Source: a virus. From it: 58,825 bases of DNA. A program made the position numbers and the translations under genes. The notes beneath the pieces are model-generated. The model had not been told where the DNA came from, ran no database searches, and was given only the letters and a program-made list of their open reading frames with translations. Below, piece by piece: positions 25,736 through 38,922 of this stretch. The first letter of the stretch is position 1. Every line of letters begins with the position of its first letter. The DNA lies in the IMG/VR virus record IMGVR_UViG_3300048996_000263, positions 1 to 58,825 of that record; one strand, given 5' to 3'.

Positions 25736-27376
25736 TCAGTTCAGCACCATCACCTTGCGGCGTCCTGGTGGCTTGTTCGCGCCGGCGGCAACCGCGTCAC
25801 AGCGCGCTTCGTGCGCGAGGACCGTGCACATCGCGAGGTCGATCTTCTGGCTCTCCGACGGTTTCCCGAGGATGTAGTGATCGCCCGGCTTGGGCACACG
25901 GCGCGCATTACCGATGTGCAGGTCGGTCGACTTGCATCCGTCCTGCGTGATCACAGTGGACAGGTCAGTCACGAACCGTTTCAGCGACGCGTGCATCGCC
26001 GGGATCCGGTTCGTCTCCCACTTCACGACCCGCTTCTCACCGAACTTCAGCTGAAGGCCCTCGATATCGGTCTTCCACTCCCGCACGTCGCAGTAGGCCC
26101 GGACAACGACGAACCGACGGAACAGCTCGTCGAACGCAGCGAGGACTTCGCTGCGAGGGATCTCACCCTCGAATAGTCCCGGGTCCCAAAACGTCGGCAG
26201 CTCGTCGGGCCCGTACGTGGGTGTGAAGCTGTACCCGTCCAAGGTCTCTGCGCGGATGCCGGTCCAGTCGCTCGAGTCTGAACCGTCAAACCCGAGGCAC
26301 ACCTTCGTCTTGTCCGGCACGAACAGCGACCGCTTCCGGCCGTCCCACAGACCATCCTTCAACCATGTGCCGGCGCCGGACTTCGCGCGGTTCCCGAAGA
26401 ACCGCTCGGCCTGTCCAGGGTCGACCTCGAGTAGCTCGGCGGCTTCGGCCTCGATCGAGTCGAGGTCGATGTGACCGCCGCGCTCCTTGAGTGACTCGCC
26501 GTACACGTGGACGTGGATGCGGCGTCGTTCCCGCTTGTCCCGGTACGACAGTCCCTTGGGAGCTTGCGGGTGGTAGCGGAAAATGTCGGTCCGGGTGGAC
26601 TCCGCGGTGCGTTGCGCCACCGACTTGTCCGCCGGCGACCAAGCGTTCGTCGTCTCCTCCGCCCGGCCGCCCATGCCAGCCAGGCCGCGCCGCTGGGTCT
26701 CGGCGACTTTCACCATCCGGTTCGTCTCCGTCCAAATCCCCGTCTCGTCCTGGGGAACGAACGTCACACGCTGACCCAGCCGGGACTGCGCCGAGCTCGT
26801 CACCACATCAATGCGACCGTCGTTCGGGAGGCGAATGAACTCCTCGCCCGTCTTCGGGATCACGTCCCGCAATGGGCCTTGCTCGATCATCGGCCGCAAC
26901 GCCGCGTACACGTTGTCGGTCTGCTCCTCCGACGTCGCCGTGATTTGGATCAGTGGTGTCGGCCACGGCATGCCCATCGGCTCGCCCGGCTGGTACTCGT
27001 ACACCCAGCCACAGTCACAACCATGGTCACTGCAGTCGTACGTCTCGCCACCCTGCGCCCAGCCCGCGAACAGTGCCGGCCCGACGCCTTCAAGGCAGAC
27101 ATGCGCCGCGGTGTAGGGGCCCTTGCCCGCCTTTTGCGGAAGAACCACCTGCGACCGGCGATAGAAGAACGCCGGCGCGAGGACTGGATTGTTCGGCACC
27201 CACAACGCATCCGGCTTCACGCGGTAGAAGTTCGCGAAACACCAACCCTGCCACCCCAACAACTTGAACGGGCTTCCCTTGCGGAACCCGTCCGGAATGA
27301 CACAGTGCGCCTCGACCCAATCCAGCGACACCCACAACGTGGGGAAGTCAATGACGAACTCAGGCTCCGTCTGCAT
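25736..27376 (-). CDS. Terminase large subunit
   Basis: Protein of 546 residues. ATPase core shows the deviant Walker A region QVVLPQKAGKGPYTAAH and the acidic FVPQDETGIW motif. The nuclease half has LGFDGSDSSDWTGI with metal-binding acids, and later VVVRAYCDVREWKTDIEGLQ. It packages DNA into the procapsid. Overlaps the small-subunit gene by 17 bases. Confidence 0.94.
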   Translation of the reverse strand: MQTEPEFVIDFPTLWVSLDWVEAHCVIPDGFRKGSPFKLLGWQGWCFANFYRVKPDALWVPNNPVLAPAFFYRRSQVVLPQKAGKGPYTAAHVCLEGVGPALFAGWAQGGETYDCSDHGCDCGWVYEYQPGEPMGMPWPTPLIQITATSEEQTDNVYAALRPMIEQGPLRDVIPKTGEEFIRLPNDGRIDVVTSSAQSRLGQRVTFVPQDETGIWTETNRMVKVAETQRRGLAGMGGRAEETTNAWSPADKSVAQRTAESTRTDIFRYHPQAPKGLSYRDKRERRRIHVHVYGESLKERGGHIDLDSIEAEAAELLEVDPGQAERFFGNRAKSGAGTWLKDGLWDGRKRSLFVPDKTKVCLGFDGSDSSDWTGIRAETLDGYSFTPTYGPDELPTFWDPGLFEGEIPRSEVLAAFDELFRRFVVVRAYCDVREWKTDIEGLQLKFGEKRVVKWETNRIPAMHASLKRFVTDLSTVITQDGCKSTDLHIGNARRVPKPGDHYILGKPSESQKIDLAMCTVLAHEARCDAVAAGANKPPGRRKVMVLN

Positions 27377-28356: not shown

Positions 28357-28566
28357 TCAGTGAACCTTCGTGATGACTGGGTCCCGTGCGTCCACCAGTG
28401 CCACCACGGCAGGCGTGCAGTCACACCCAGTGCACCGGTAGTGCAGGGTGTCGTTACGGATCAGGCCGGGCTGGATCTCTTTGCATGGGACTGTCCACAC
28501 CGTGCCGAGCCTCGGGCAGTGAGGCTGGTTGCACATCAGGTGGTAGGCGTGACGGGTTGACTTCAC
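28357..28566 (-). CDS. Zinc-ribbon microprotein
   Basis: Protein of 69 residues with CNQPHC and YRCTGCDC cysteine pairs spaced as in a zinc ribbon. Packed between an HNH gene and another small gene, overlapping both closely. Function unknown; DNA or RNA binding is plausible. Confidence 0.68.
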   Translation of the reverse strand: MKSTRHAYHLMCNQPHCPRLGTVWTVPCKEIQPGLIRNDTLHYRCTGCDCTPAVVALVDARDPVITKVH

Positions 28567-28835
28567 TCGTCCTCGCTGTCGTGCACCCAGCGCCTAGCGT
28601 TCTCACGCCATGCCACATCACCGAGCGCGAGCAGGCCGAGCGTCTCGTGTGTGCGTGCACCGTTGTTCGTGAGGAACGCGGTGCAAACCTTGCCTTCACT
28701 GTCGAAGTAGGTAGCGCACAGGACGAACGCAGCGGGCATGCCGTTCGTGTCGTCGCCCAACTCGCCGGCTTTGATCGCCTCGCCGATGGCCGAAGTGATG
28801 CGGTCGGATGCGGCGTCGAGCTTCTCGTCAGCCAC
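28563..28835 (-). CDS. Small acidic hypothetical protein
   Basis: GTG 28835 lies within the last codons of the gene before it (8-base overlap); 90 residues. Has a helix (DAASDRITSAIGEAIKAGEL) and a beta part (FVLCATYFDSEGKVCTAFLT). No family recognised. Confidence 0.65.
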   Translation of the reverse strand: MADEKLDAASDRITSAIGEAIKAGELGDDTNGMPAAFVLCATYFDSEGKVCTAFLTNNGARTHETLGLLALGDVAWRENARRWVHDSEDE

Positions 28836-29181
28836 CCTCGTCCTCACCCTCGTCCAACTGCGTCTGCCTGCGGTTGATGACAGCCATGGACTCCGACAGC
28901 ATGCCGCGCACCACGTACGTGGGTAGGCCGTCACCGCTGACCAGGTGGATGACCGAGCCGCCGCCATCGAACCTGCGGGTAGCCGCGAGGACTACCCAGT
29001 CAGTGATGACCTCGCCGTCATCCACTGCGTCTTCGGCGTAGGTGCGGATGGCTTCGTCGAGGACAGCGCGGTGCTTGTCGTCTGCGGTCACCGGGCCGCC
29101 TTCCTGCTGTTGCAGGTGCGGCACTGGCCAGGCCGGGACTGTGACGTCCTTCAGGCTGTGGTCCACGTCGCTCCTCGCCAT
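28828..29181 (-). CDS. Hypothetical protein
   Basis: Protein of 117 residues. DEAIRTYAEDAVDDGEVITD and LAATRRFDGGGSVIHLVSGD suggest an alpha/beta fold seen in small phage proteins near packaging genes. Starts directly after the tRNA-like gene. Its ending EGEDEGG is acidic. Unknown function. Confidence 0.65.
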   Translation of the reverse strand: MARSDVDHSLKDVTVPAWPVPHLQQQEGGPVTADDKHRAVLDEAIRTYAEDAVDDGEVITDWVVLAATRRFDGGGSVIHLVSGDGLPTYVVRGMLSESMAVINRRQTQLDEGEDEGG

Positions 29182-29183
29182 AA

Positions 29184-29267
29184 CTCACCGGGCAGGATTT
29201 GAACCTGCGCTTCCACCTTCGACCTCCCGGCGTCGGGTGGCGTCCTGGGCCGCTAAACGACCGGTGA
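29184..29267 (-). tRNA. tRNA-like gene (Glu-type scaffold) with an enlarged anticodon arm
   Basis: On the minus strand, the acceptor arms TCACCGG and CCGGTGA pair perfectly over seven bases. The D arm (GTTT...GGAC around AGCGGCCCA) resembles tRNA-Glu, and the T arm GCAGG-TTCAAAT-CCTGC is canonical. The anticodon stem CCACC/GGTGG is intact, but it encloses 18 bases (29218-29235) instead of seven. Those bases can form an inner CGAC/GTCG helix. No normal T33-anticodon layout can be read. The discriminator is G and CCA is not encoded. It is 84 bases long, eleven longer than normal. Could be a pseudogene, a regulatory tRNA mimic, or one needing processing. Confidence 0.7.
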
Positions 29268-29274
29268 GCCTGAC

Positions 29275-29637
29275 TCATCTTGCACCCTTGCGGCCGTTGC
29301 ACGACCTGCACATGGGTACGACTGGTTGCATCGGGTCGCCGCCCCTCGCGATCGGGACCGGGTCGTCCGCTGTCATCTCGCACGGGAACACGACGTGTGG
29401 TGGTCGACCGTAGCCAGGGCAGATGACCATGCCGTCCTCTGTCTGGTGCTCACTGTTGTGGGCTTGGACAGCGGTGGCTCTGTGCTTCCTGACCGCGGTG
29501 GTGCGGGCCCGCTTGGTCGGTGTCGTGCGCCTGAGTGCGGCTTGACGCCGGGGTTCGCAGCGTTCAGCGCAGTACCCGGATGGGGTAGCGGTGTTGTTGC
29601 ATCCTGGGATGGAGCAGCGCTTGGTGGCGCGGCGCAT
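29275..29637 (-). CDS. HNH-like protein with altered core His
   Basis: Protein of 120 residues. Same plan as the HNH gene at 28014: an N-terminal zinc site (RCSIPGCNNTATPSGYCAER) and a C-terminal core TADDPVPIARGGDP with CRSCNGRKG. Here the core reads TADD where the paralogue has TADH, so the catalytic-looking His is replaced by Asp. The second zinc knuckle is intact, opposite to the paralogue. May be a degenerate or different HNH subtype. Confidence 0.75.
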   Translation of the reverse strand: MRRATKRCSIPGCNNTATPSGYCAERCEPRRQAALRRTTPTKRARTTAVRKHRATAVQAHNSEHQTEDGMVICPGYGRPPHVVFPCEMTADDPVPIARGGDPMQPVVPMCRSCNGRKGAR

Positions 29638-37513: not shown

Positions 37514-37767
37514 GGCTTCTCCTGTGGTCGGTCGCTGCACGGAACCTGAACGTGATTCTCGGCCTGCCACGCCTCCACCTCCGTGCGTGCAGCGTCGATC
37601 CCGTCAAGGTGACGCATCGGGGACCCGTTCAACAAGCACATCTCCCGGTAGATCCCGAGGACCGCTGGGAGCATGACGTCCTGGGCGCGGAACACGAACA
37701 CCGGTTCGTCGAAGCCGATGACGCCGTTCTCAGGCGTGAAGTGCCCGTACTTCCGGTCAACAGCCAT
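37510..37767 (-). CDS. Hypothetical protein
   Basis: Protein of 85 residues with GGAGGAGA before the ATG. FTPENGVIGFDEPVFVFRAQ and AVLGIYREMCLLNGS suggest a small alpha/beta domain. Its ribosome site lies in the repeat at the end of the Thg1-like gene. Unknown function. Confidence 0.65.
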   Translation of the reverse strand: MAVDRKYGHFTPENGVIGFDEPVFVFRAQDVMLPAVLGIYREMCLLNGSPMRHLDGIDAARTEVEAWQAENHVQVPCSDRPQEKP

Positions 37768-38546
37768 CACGTCTCCTCCGTTGGTCGTTGACTGACAGGC
37801 TGCAAGACCGGAAACCCATCCTCAGCAGTGAACAACGGCGCGGCATCCACCGTCCACACCCGACGCTCCACACCCTCAGCGACACACGTCTCACCCGAAC
37901 GGCGATCGACGTATTCGACCGACCCGAGCTCTATCCGAGACGACACGAGCGTTCCCCGCTTGAACCTCGGGTTGTAGTCGTTCCAGTTCACGCCATGCTG
38001 AGACCACAGCATGTCCTGCATCTCACCGGACGACTTGCCGTGCAGCTGCTTGTGCGAGAAGCACGCTTGCGCGGCCATGGAGATCGAGTTACGGGTAGCG
38101 TCCTTCTGCCGCCACACGAAGTAGTTCCTCACCTCCACCGGGTCGGAGATGGTGAACACGCGTGAGTCGAAGAACGCGAGCTTGCCGGGACGAAGCTCGT
38201 TGAACTTCGCTGTGGCGAGCGACGCTGAGATGCTGACGATCTTCTGGATGTTGCCGTCGAACCATGCCTGCGTCTTGGTGGTGCCGAAGTCCATCAGCAG
38301 GAGGCTGATCTCGTCGGACTGCGTGTACGCCATGCACGTCCCGGCGATCTCCTTGCACAGGAACGTCGCAGTGGCCGCCATGTCGAGCATAAGCGGCGCG
38401 TCGTACGGCCGGTTCAGTCCGCGCGTGTACGTGTGGAACGCCTTCCCGTCCAGGCGGATGATCGTGTACGTGCGTCGAGGGAGGGCATAGCGGGTGCGGT
38501 TCTCGTACGAATCCTTCATGCGGTCACCGAGCGTGTCCCGGTTCAC
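37767..38546 (-). CDS. Thg1-like 3'-5' RNA polymerase
   Basis: Protein of 259 residues from GTG 38546 (AGGAGACGAC upstream). Adds nucleotides to RNA 5' ends, opposite to normal polymerases. The N-terminus MKDSYENRTRYALPRRTYTI leads to IIRLDGKAFHTYTRGLNRPY, with the metal-binding Asp33 and Gly34, and then YTQSDEISLLLMDF, with Asp78 and Glu79. NSISMAAQACFSHKQLHGKS matches the family's C-terminal part. Eukaryotic Thg1 adds G-1 to tRNA-His; bacterial and phage relatives repair 5'-truncated tRNAs. All catalytic acids are present. Flanked by 18-bp direct repeats, so likely acquired as a cassette. Confidence 0.92.
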   Translation of the reverse strand: MNRDTLGDRMKDSYENRTRYALPRRTYTIIRLDGKAFHTYTRGLNRPYDAPLMLDMAATATFLCKEIAGTCMAYTQSDEISLLLMDFGTTKTQAWFDGNIQKIVSISASLATAKFNELRPGKLAFFDSRVFTISDPVEVRNYFVWRQKDATRNSISMAAQACFSHKQLHGKSSGEMQDMLWSQHGVNWNDYNPRFKRGTLVSSRIELGSVEYVDRRSGETCVAEGVERRVWTVDAAPLFTAEDGFPVLQPVSQRPTEET

Positions 38547-38567
38547 GTCGTCTCCTCCGTTGGTCGT
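37771..38567 (-). repeat. 18-bp direct repeats flanking the Thg1-like gene
   Basis: The plus-strand sequence GTCTCCTCCGTTGGTCGT occurs at 37771-37788 and again at 38550-38567. Each copy encodes the (R)PTEET ending of one gene and the GGAGGAG ribosome site of the next. Confidence 0.85.
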
Positions 38568-38689
38568 GGCCCGAACTCGGTGACCGTGTCGACATCCGCC
38601 AACTCGCCGGCTGCCCTGTCGTCGAAACCCACGTTCCTGTAGTCCTCCCGTATCCGGTGCCAGTGGATGTCCCACACCTCCGGGGTCAC
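38543..38689 (-). CDS. Small acidic protein
   Basis: Protein of 48 residues from GTG 38689 (GTGA overlap upstream) to a TGA overlapping the Thg1-like GTG. VWDIHWHRIREDYRNVGFDD is a helix; ends FGPRPTEETT, similar to the end of the Thg1-like protein because of the direct repeat. Unknown function. Confidence 0.6.
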   Translation of the reverse strand: MTPEVWDIHWHRIREDYRNVGFDDRAAGELADVDTVTEFGPRPTEETT

Positions 38690-38922
38690 GGGCTCTTCTC
38701 CCACAACGAACAGATGCAGGCGAACGGATGGAAGCAGCGCTTCGCCTGGGCTGCCTTGACATCGTCAGCGATGCGCGCGAATGCCTGCCGGATCGCGTCC
38801 TCGTTGGCCTTGGCCGACCTGTAGAACCCCGCCAGGTTCAGACTCACTTCGTAGACCACGTCAGGTGGCGGGCGGAGAATGCCGAGCCTGCGTGCGATCC
38901 CTCGTCTGATCGGCACGTTCAC
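38686..38922 (-). CDS. Hypothetical helical protein
   Basis: Protein of 78 residues. Basic N-terminus (RRGIARRLGILRPPPDVVYE), then helices (ANEDAIRQAFARIADDVKAA) and a Cys-containing end (CFHPFACICSLWEK). Unknown function. Confidence 0.65.
   Translation of the reverse strand: MNVPIRRGIARRLGILRPPPDVVYEVSLNLAGFYRSAKANEDAIRQAFARIADDVKAAQAKRCFHPFACICSLWEKSP

What the first reader, a model, noticed from the sequence alone, without database searches (positions are those of the whole stretch)
29184..29267. tRNA-like gene with an 18-base anticodon region
Acceptor, D and T arms and the anticodon stem are fully paired, yet the loop holds 18 bases instead of seven and lacks a readable T33 and anticodon. 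Decay would be expected to damage stems first, so selection may keep this shape. It could be a tRNA mimic, a tRNA with a small intron-like insert, or a decoy for host tRNA nucleases.
Basis: partly seen in the sequence, partly recalled or inferred. Interest (0 to 1): 0.75.

Follow-up and report, generated by a model that had tools for sequence, protein, structure and literature searches.

The report
Phage tRNA-like RNA without an anticodon
A bacterial virus carries a gene for an RNA built like a transfer RNA whose code-reading loop has been replaced by an unrelated insert, and because four other virus records keep the same body with different inserts, it looks like a small family of non-decoding tRNA mimics rather than one broken copy.

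Summary
On the minus strand, 29267-29184, lies a tRNA-shaped element (Rfam tRNA 42.6 bits, E 2e-9) with intact acceptor, D and T arms, a 5-bp anticodon stem and an 18-nt loop without U33 or a readable anticodon.

It is not a lone damaged copy. Four other IMG/VR records carry the same body with 29-, 29-, 31- and about 51-nt loops. The exact 21-nt D-arm occurs in viral contigs only in expanded-loop copies. One (82-kb contig) shares neighbours with the window: tRNA body 63/66 identical, flanking genes 63-67%, insert unalignable. Compensatory changes occur in acceptor and anticodon stems; two inserts fold far better than chance, the window's own does not. The body matches actinobacterial tRNA-Glu, whose host copies span a normal length. 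Deleting one contiguous block never restores U33, so an intron is unlikely.

Best reading: a non-decoding tRNA mimic derived from actinobacterial tRNA-Glu, matured like a tRNA and acting outside translation, perhaps as a decoy for host tRNA-binding or tRNA-attacking proteins. Expression and function are untested; slow decay, an RNA-processing signal and a hairpin-carrying scaffold remain possible. Novelty: a variant of phage tRNAs and pseudo-tRNAs.

The parts
29184..29267 (-). tRNA-like RNA gene (Glu-type body, anticodon loop replaced by 18 nt)
   Evidence: RF00005 42.6 bits; family model R1 83 bits
29261..29267 (-). acceptor stem 5' strand UCACCGG (C29268 could also pair with G73)
29242..29258 (-). 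D-arm GUUUAGCGGCCCAGGAC, Glu-type; identical in L053, L055, L062
29236..29240 (-). anticodon stem 5' strand CCACC
29218..29235 (-). 18-nt insert in place of the anticodon loop, CGACGCCGGGAGGUCGAA; weak CGAC/GUCG helix; contains GGAGGU
29213..29217 (-). anticodon stem 3' strand GGUGG
29192..29208 (-). T-arm GCAGG UUCAAAU CCUGC
29275..29637 (-). HNH-type endonuclease ORF; stop codon 7 nt upstream of the element; 66% aa homologue upstream of the tRNA-like element in the 82-kb contig G052
   Evidence: (PHROG 144/8660)
28828..29181 (-). small ORF downstream (phrog_4307, weak DUF7213); true start probably the GTG near 29090; 57% aa homologue in G052
25736..27376 (-). terminase large subunit (used to collect relatives)

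Best explanation
The element is a phage-borne, non-decoding tRNA mimic derived from an actinobacterial tRNA-Glu. Shown: the tRNA body (acceptor, D, T, elbow bases, anticodon stem) is kept while the anticodon loop is replaced by inserts of 18 to about 51 nt that differ between phages. Inferred: it is transcribed with the upstream gene, cut out by host RNase P and a 3' tRNA processing enzyme, given CCA, and folds into the tRNA L-shape, but cannot decode and is unlikely to be charged normally. It would then act outside translation, most likely as a competitor or decoy for a host factor that recognises the tRNA elbow or acceptor end; the replaced loop would keep it out of the ribosome and make it a poor substrate for anticodon nucleases. 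The target is unknown.
For: Five family members from five metagenome records (window, L053, L055, L062, G058) score 73-84 bits with model R1; other tRNA-like sequences in the fetched loci score 53 or less. The 21-nt D-arm occurs in viral contigs only in expanded-loop members. Window and G052 share neighbours (HNH 66% aa, small ORF 57% aa); body 63/66 identical, flanks 63-67% identical at DNA level, inserts 18 and 31 nt; 3 or fewer changes in 66 at flank divergence has P about 2e-8. Compensatory changes in five stem pairs, 98% of cells paired, none of 500 shuffles as good. G058 and L062 inserts fold better than shuffles (p 0.001 and 0.0005; L053 0.03, L055 0.025). Closest host sequences are tRNA-Glu with normal loops, and every R1 match listed in 396 actinobacterial genomes spans 73-74 nt.
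Against: No expression data. The window's own insert does not fold better than chance. Only five members in two pairs plus one. In the G049/G051 pair the element lies in a block that is conserved as a whole, so it gives no extra evidence of constraint. The closest terminase relatives L002 and L003 have no tRNA there. The shuffle control does not correct for relatedness. A decoy role is not tested by any result here.
Confidence: 0.42

Rival explanations
1. Decaying captured tRNA: a tRNA-Glu gene picked up by phages whose anticodon loop was broken by insertions and which has no current function.
For: Degenerate tRNA-like sequences occur upstream of the terminase gene in more distant relatives; the region is hypervariable and lacks a tRNA in the nearest terminase relatives; the window insert is not significantly structured.
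Against: Body 63/66 identical between window and G052 while flanks are 63-67% identical; compensatory stem changes; no normal-loop relative with this D-arm in viral contigs; long paired arms in G058 and L062.
Confidence: 0.25
2. RNA punctuation: the tRNA shape is a processing signal in a polycistronic phage transcript; RNase P and a 3' processing enzyme cut there, so only acceptor, T and D arms need be kept.
For: The element starts 7 nt after the HNH stop codon; in G052 it starts a few nt, in G051 17 nt, after an upstream stop codon. RNase P recognition rests mainly on acceptor and T arms (general knowledge).
Against: In G049/G051 the gene immediately downstream is convergent; tight spacing is normal in phage genomes; it does not explain why the anticodon arm is elongated rather than lost.
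Confidence: 0.13
3. Natural tRNA scaffold: the tRNA body protects a hairpin payload (antisense or protein-binding RNA) placed in the anticodon position.
For: Inserts form long hairpins in G058 (16 bp in two blocks) and L062 (8 bp); engineered tRNA scaffolds carry inserted RNAs in the anticodon arm (PMC3753655; details from general knowledge). The window insert contains the Shine-Dalgarno-like GGAGGU.
Against: Insert sequence and length differ completely between the syntenic pair window/G052; no target was identified; the window hairpin is weak.
Confidence: 0.13
4. Functional tRNA with a small intron that is removed by splicing.
Against: No single contiguous excision yields a 7-nt loop with U33 in any of the five members; no bulge-helix-bulge geometry; 11 nt is far too small for a group I intron (general knowledge).
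Confidence: 0.02

Closest known systems
Phage tRNAs with anticodon-loop mutations that evade anticodon nucleases (PMC10264068)
   Same: Phage-encoded tRNA genes altered in the anticodon loop; actinobacterial hosts
   Different: Those keep a loop and anticodon able to decode; here the loop is 18 to about 51 nt with no U33 or anticodon. The words insertion and loop size do not occur in the held text.
tRNAOther pseudo-tRNA of Bacillus cereus (PMC3399842)
   Same: tRNA-like RNA thought to act outside translation
   Different: tRNAOther keeps a Trp anticodon and is chromosomal; here the anticodon is gone and the carrier is a phage
tmRNA tRNA-like domain
   Same: tRNA acceptor and T arm with the anticodon arm replaced by other RNA
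   Different: tmRNA lacks a normal D-arm and carries a tag reading frame; ARAGORN finds no tmRNA here
Engineered tRNA scaffold
   Same: Hairpin inserted in the anticodon position of an intact tRNA body
   Different: Man-made; here it occurs naturally and function is unknown

Membership tests
Canonical tRNA (RF00005) | Acceptor, D and T arms and anticodon stem with tRNA tertiary bases | tested here: met
   42.6 bits, all 71 model positions
Canonical tRNA (RF00005) | 7-nt anticodon loop with U33 and a readable anticodon | tested here: not met
   18-nt loop; no excision restores U33
Canonical tRNA (RF00005) | Aminoacylated and used by the ribosome | not testable with these tools
   needs charging and polysome assays
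tRNA with archaeal-type or group I intron | Excision gives a normal anticodon loop | tested here: not met
   0 of 5 members
tmRNA | Tag reading frame and tRNA-like domain without a normal D-arm | tested here: not met
   ARAGORN tmRNA search negative; D-arm intact
Pseudo-tRNA such as tRNAOther | Expressed tRNA-like RNA acting outside translation | not testable with these tools
   no expression data
Expanded-loop phage tRNA family (model R1) | Shared Glu-type body with an anticodon loop much longer than 7 nt | tested here: met
   83 bits with R1 (the window is in the training set); loops 18-51 nt in five members
Anticodon-nuclease decoy | Binds or inhibits a host tRNA nuclease | not testable with these tools
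   needs binding or plaque assays

The most novel reading that the evidence does not exclude
Phages maintain a class of RNAs that are complete tRNA bodies with the anticodon arm turned into an elongated hairpin, used as anti-defence decoys or regulators. Similar architectures in a second phage tRNA family (L158, L165) and in Streptomyces chromosomes would then be convergent instances of one strategy.
Probability: 0.3. Interest if true: 0.82.

Novelty: new variant of a known kind. Interest (0 to 1): 0.6.

Why it matters
Why phages carry tRNA genes is a long-standing question. A conserved tRNA body that cannot decode separates translation from every other possible use and gives a clean genetic test: any effect of deleting it cannot be codon supply. 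Such elements are missed by default tRNA finders, so the class may be under-counted.

Tried and rejected
Spliced intron: rejected, no excision restores U33. Lone damaged copy: rejected, four more members. Constraint in the G049/G051 pair: first looked strong (3 of 95 changes), then withdrawn because about a fifth of control windows are as conserved (431 of 2075). Link with the window's Thg1-like gene: not supported, no homologue in the fetched parts of G049, G051 or G052. Members in named phages or plasmids: none convincing; the Mycobacterium plasmid hits are normal tRNA-Met in tRNA arrays. Nannocystis hits of the genome scan look like ordinary type II tRNA-Ser. A promoter or terminator next to the element: none found with a sigma-70-type scan. 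Attachment-site origin was considered and judged unlikely: the integrase is about 28 kb away and the whole tRNA, not a 3' part, is present; this was not tested further.

Full report
What is there. The window is a 58,825-base IMG/VR virus record encoding a tyrosine integrase, terminase and structural proteins. The element lies on the minus strand at 29267-29184. Rfam aligns it to the tRNA family over all positions at 42.6 bits, E 2.4e-9 for the record. Acceptor, D and T arms and the anticodon stem pair; the D stem has two G-U pairs. The loop is 18 nt, CGACGCCGGGAGGUCGAA. Default ARAGORN and gathering-mode Rfam both miss it.

Relatives at the same place. Fifty-one terminase relatives were fetched. 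The nearest two, L002 and L003 (75% aa), have no tRNA upstream of the terminase. Several others have ordinary tRNAs there, and some have degenerate tRNA-like sequences. So the region is a variable slot where tRNA genes come and go.

Relatives of the element itself. Pattern scans of 2.9 million viral contigs found L053, L055 and L062 and, through the T-arm, G058. All have the same body but loops of 29, 29, 31 and about 51 nt. The exact 21-base D-arm occurs in viral contigs only in expanded-loop copies. A covariance model of the five bodies (R1) scores members at 73-84 bits and all other tRNA-like sequences in the fetched loci at 53 or less; the members are its training set, so only the gap to the rest is informative.

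Origin. The closest host sequences are actinobacterial tRNA-Glu genes with one mismatch in the D-arm and normal 7-nt Glu anticodon loops. R1 matches in 396 actinobacterial genomes reach 71 bits and every match listed spans 73 or 74 nt, that is, a normal loop. The phage family therefore derives from tRNA-Glu but carries different acceptor and T stems.

Constraint. The 82-kb contig G052 shares with the window an HNH gene (66% aa) upstream and a small ORF (57% aa) downstream of its element, so this is probably the same locus. The tRNA body is 63/66 identical; flanking DNA is 63-67% identical; 3 or fewer changes at that divergence has P about 2e-8. The inserts, 18 and 31 nt, do not resemble each other. 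Horizontal transfer of the element alone could mimic this, but the inserts would then have had to change completely in a short time. In the G049/G051 pair, by contrast, the element is in a generally conserved block and adds nothing.

Structure. Five stem pairs show changes on both sides, mostly in G058, and 98% of cells pair against 92.5% in shuffles; MAFFT misplaces one D-loop base of G058, so a sixth is likely. The inserts of G058 and L062 fold far better than shuffled inserts (p 0.001 and 0.0005), L053 and L055 moderately (0.03, 0.025), the window's not (0.36). The shuffles were mononucleotide with stems fixed.

What it cannot be. In none of the five does deletion of one contiguous block give a 7-nt loop with U33, which argues against a spliced tRNA. 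No tmRNA is found.

Wider pattern. Similar tRNA-like genes with replaced anticodon loops appeared in passing: a second phage family, L158 and L165, with an 18-nt hairpin-forming loop, 85/88 identical between phages that are 74-92% identical elsewhere; other phage Glu-like elements L058, L060, L063, L064; a Streptomyces and Actinacidiphila chromosomal Glu-like element capped by a UUCG hairpin, found in 4 of 81 Streptomyces genomes; and Deltaproteobacteria MAGs with longer inserts. At least 120 viral contigs carry Glu-like tRNAs of normal or near-normal spacing (scan stopped at its limit) against 10 contigs with the expanded spacing, so the expanded form is a clear minority.

Interpretation. The body is tRNA-Glu, held under constraint in at least one comparison, while decoding is impossible. 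I favour a non-decoding mimic acting outside translation, possibly a decoy; the mechanism beyond the anatomy is inference. Decay, punctuation and scaffold remain open. No literature found in the held library describes natural hairpin-for-anticodon replacement in phages; the nearest are phage tRNAs with anticodon-loop point changes (PMC10264068) and the B. cereus pseudo-tRNA (PMC3399842).

Noticed in passing
window 37767-38762 (-): Thg1-like protein (tRNA-His guanylyltransferase family, PF04446, E 1.9e-25) encoded by the phage; no homologue in the fetched parts of the other contigs that carry the element.
   Followed up: partly
L158 1540-1627 (-), L165 7059-7146 (-): Second phage tRNA family with an 18-nt hairpin-forming loop in place of the anticodon loop, 85/88 identical between two diverged phages, in clusters with other odd-loop tRNAs.
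   Followed up: partly
L065, L067, L069, L070, L082, L084, L086, L088, L091, L093, L094, L097: Streptomyces/Actinacidiphila chromosomal Glu-like tRNA gene whose anticodon loop is replaced by a UUCG-capped hairpin; in 4 of 81 Streptomyces genomes.
   Followed up: partly
L066, L071, L078, L083, L085, L098: Deltaproteobacteria MAGs with a tRNA-Glu-like gene carrying a long insert in the anticodon loop.
   Followed up: no
G058 (IMGVR_UViG_3300005471_000004) 28364-28434; L165 8954-9026: Phage tRNAs with shrunken anticodon loops (about 4 nt, GAGA and UCAC).
   Followed up: no
L136 2125-2616, L137 1068-1562: HNH endonuclease gene sitting between tRNA-Met and tRNA-Asn inside the tRNA arrays of mycobacterial plasmids.
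   Followed up: no
window 29268 and 29184, and the same positions in the four relatives: Base -1 can pair with base 73 in all five members (C-G, U-A, U-A, U-G, U-G by eye), so the acceptor stem may be 8 bp; could be chance.
   Followed up: no
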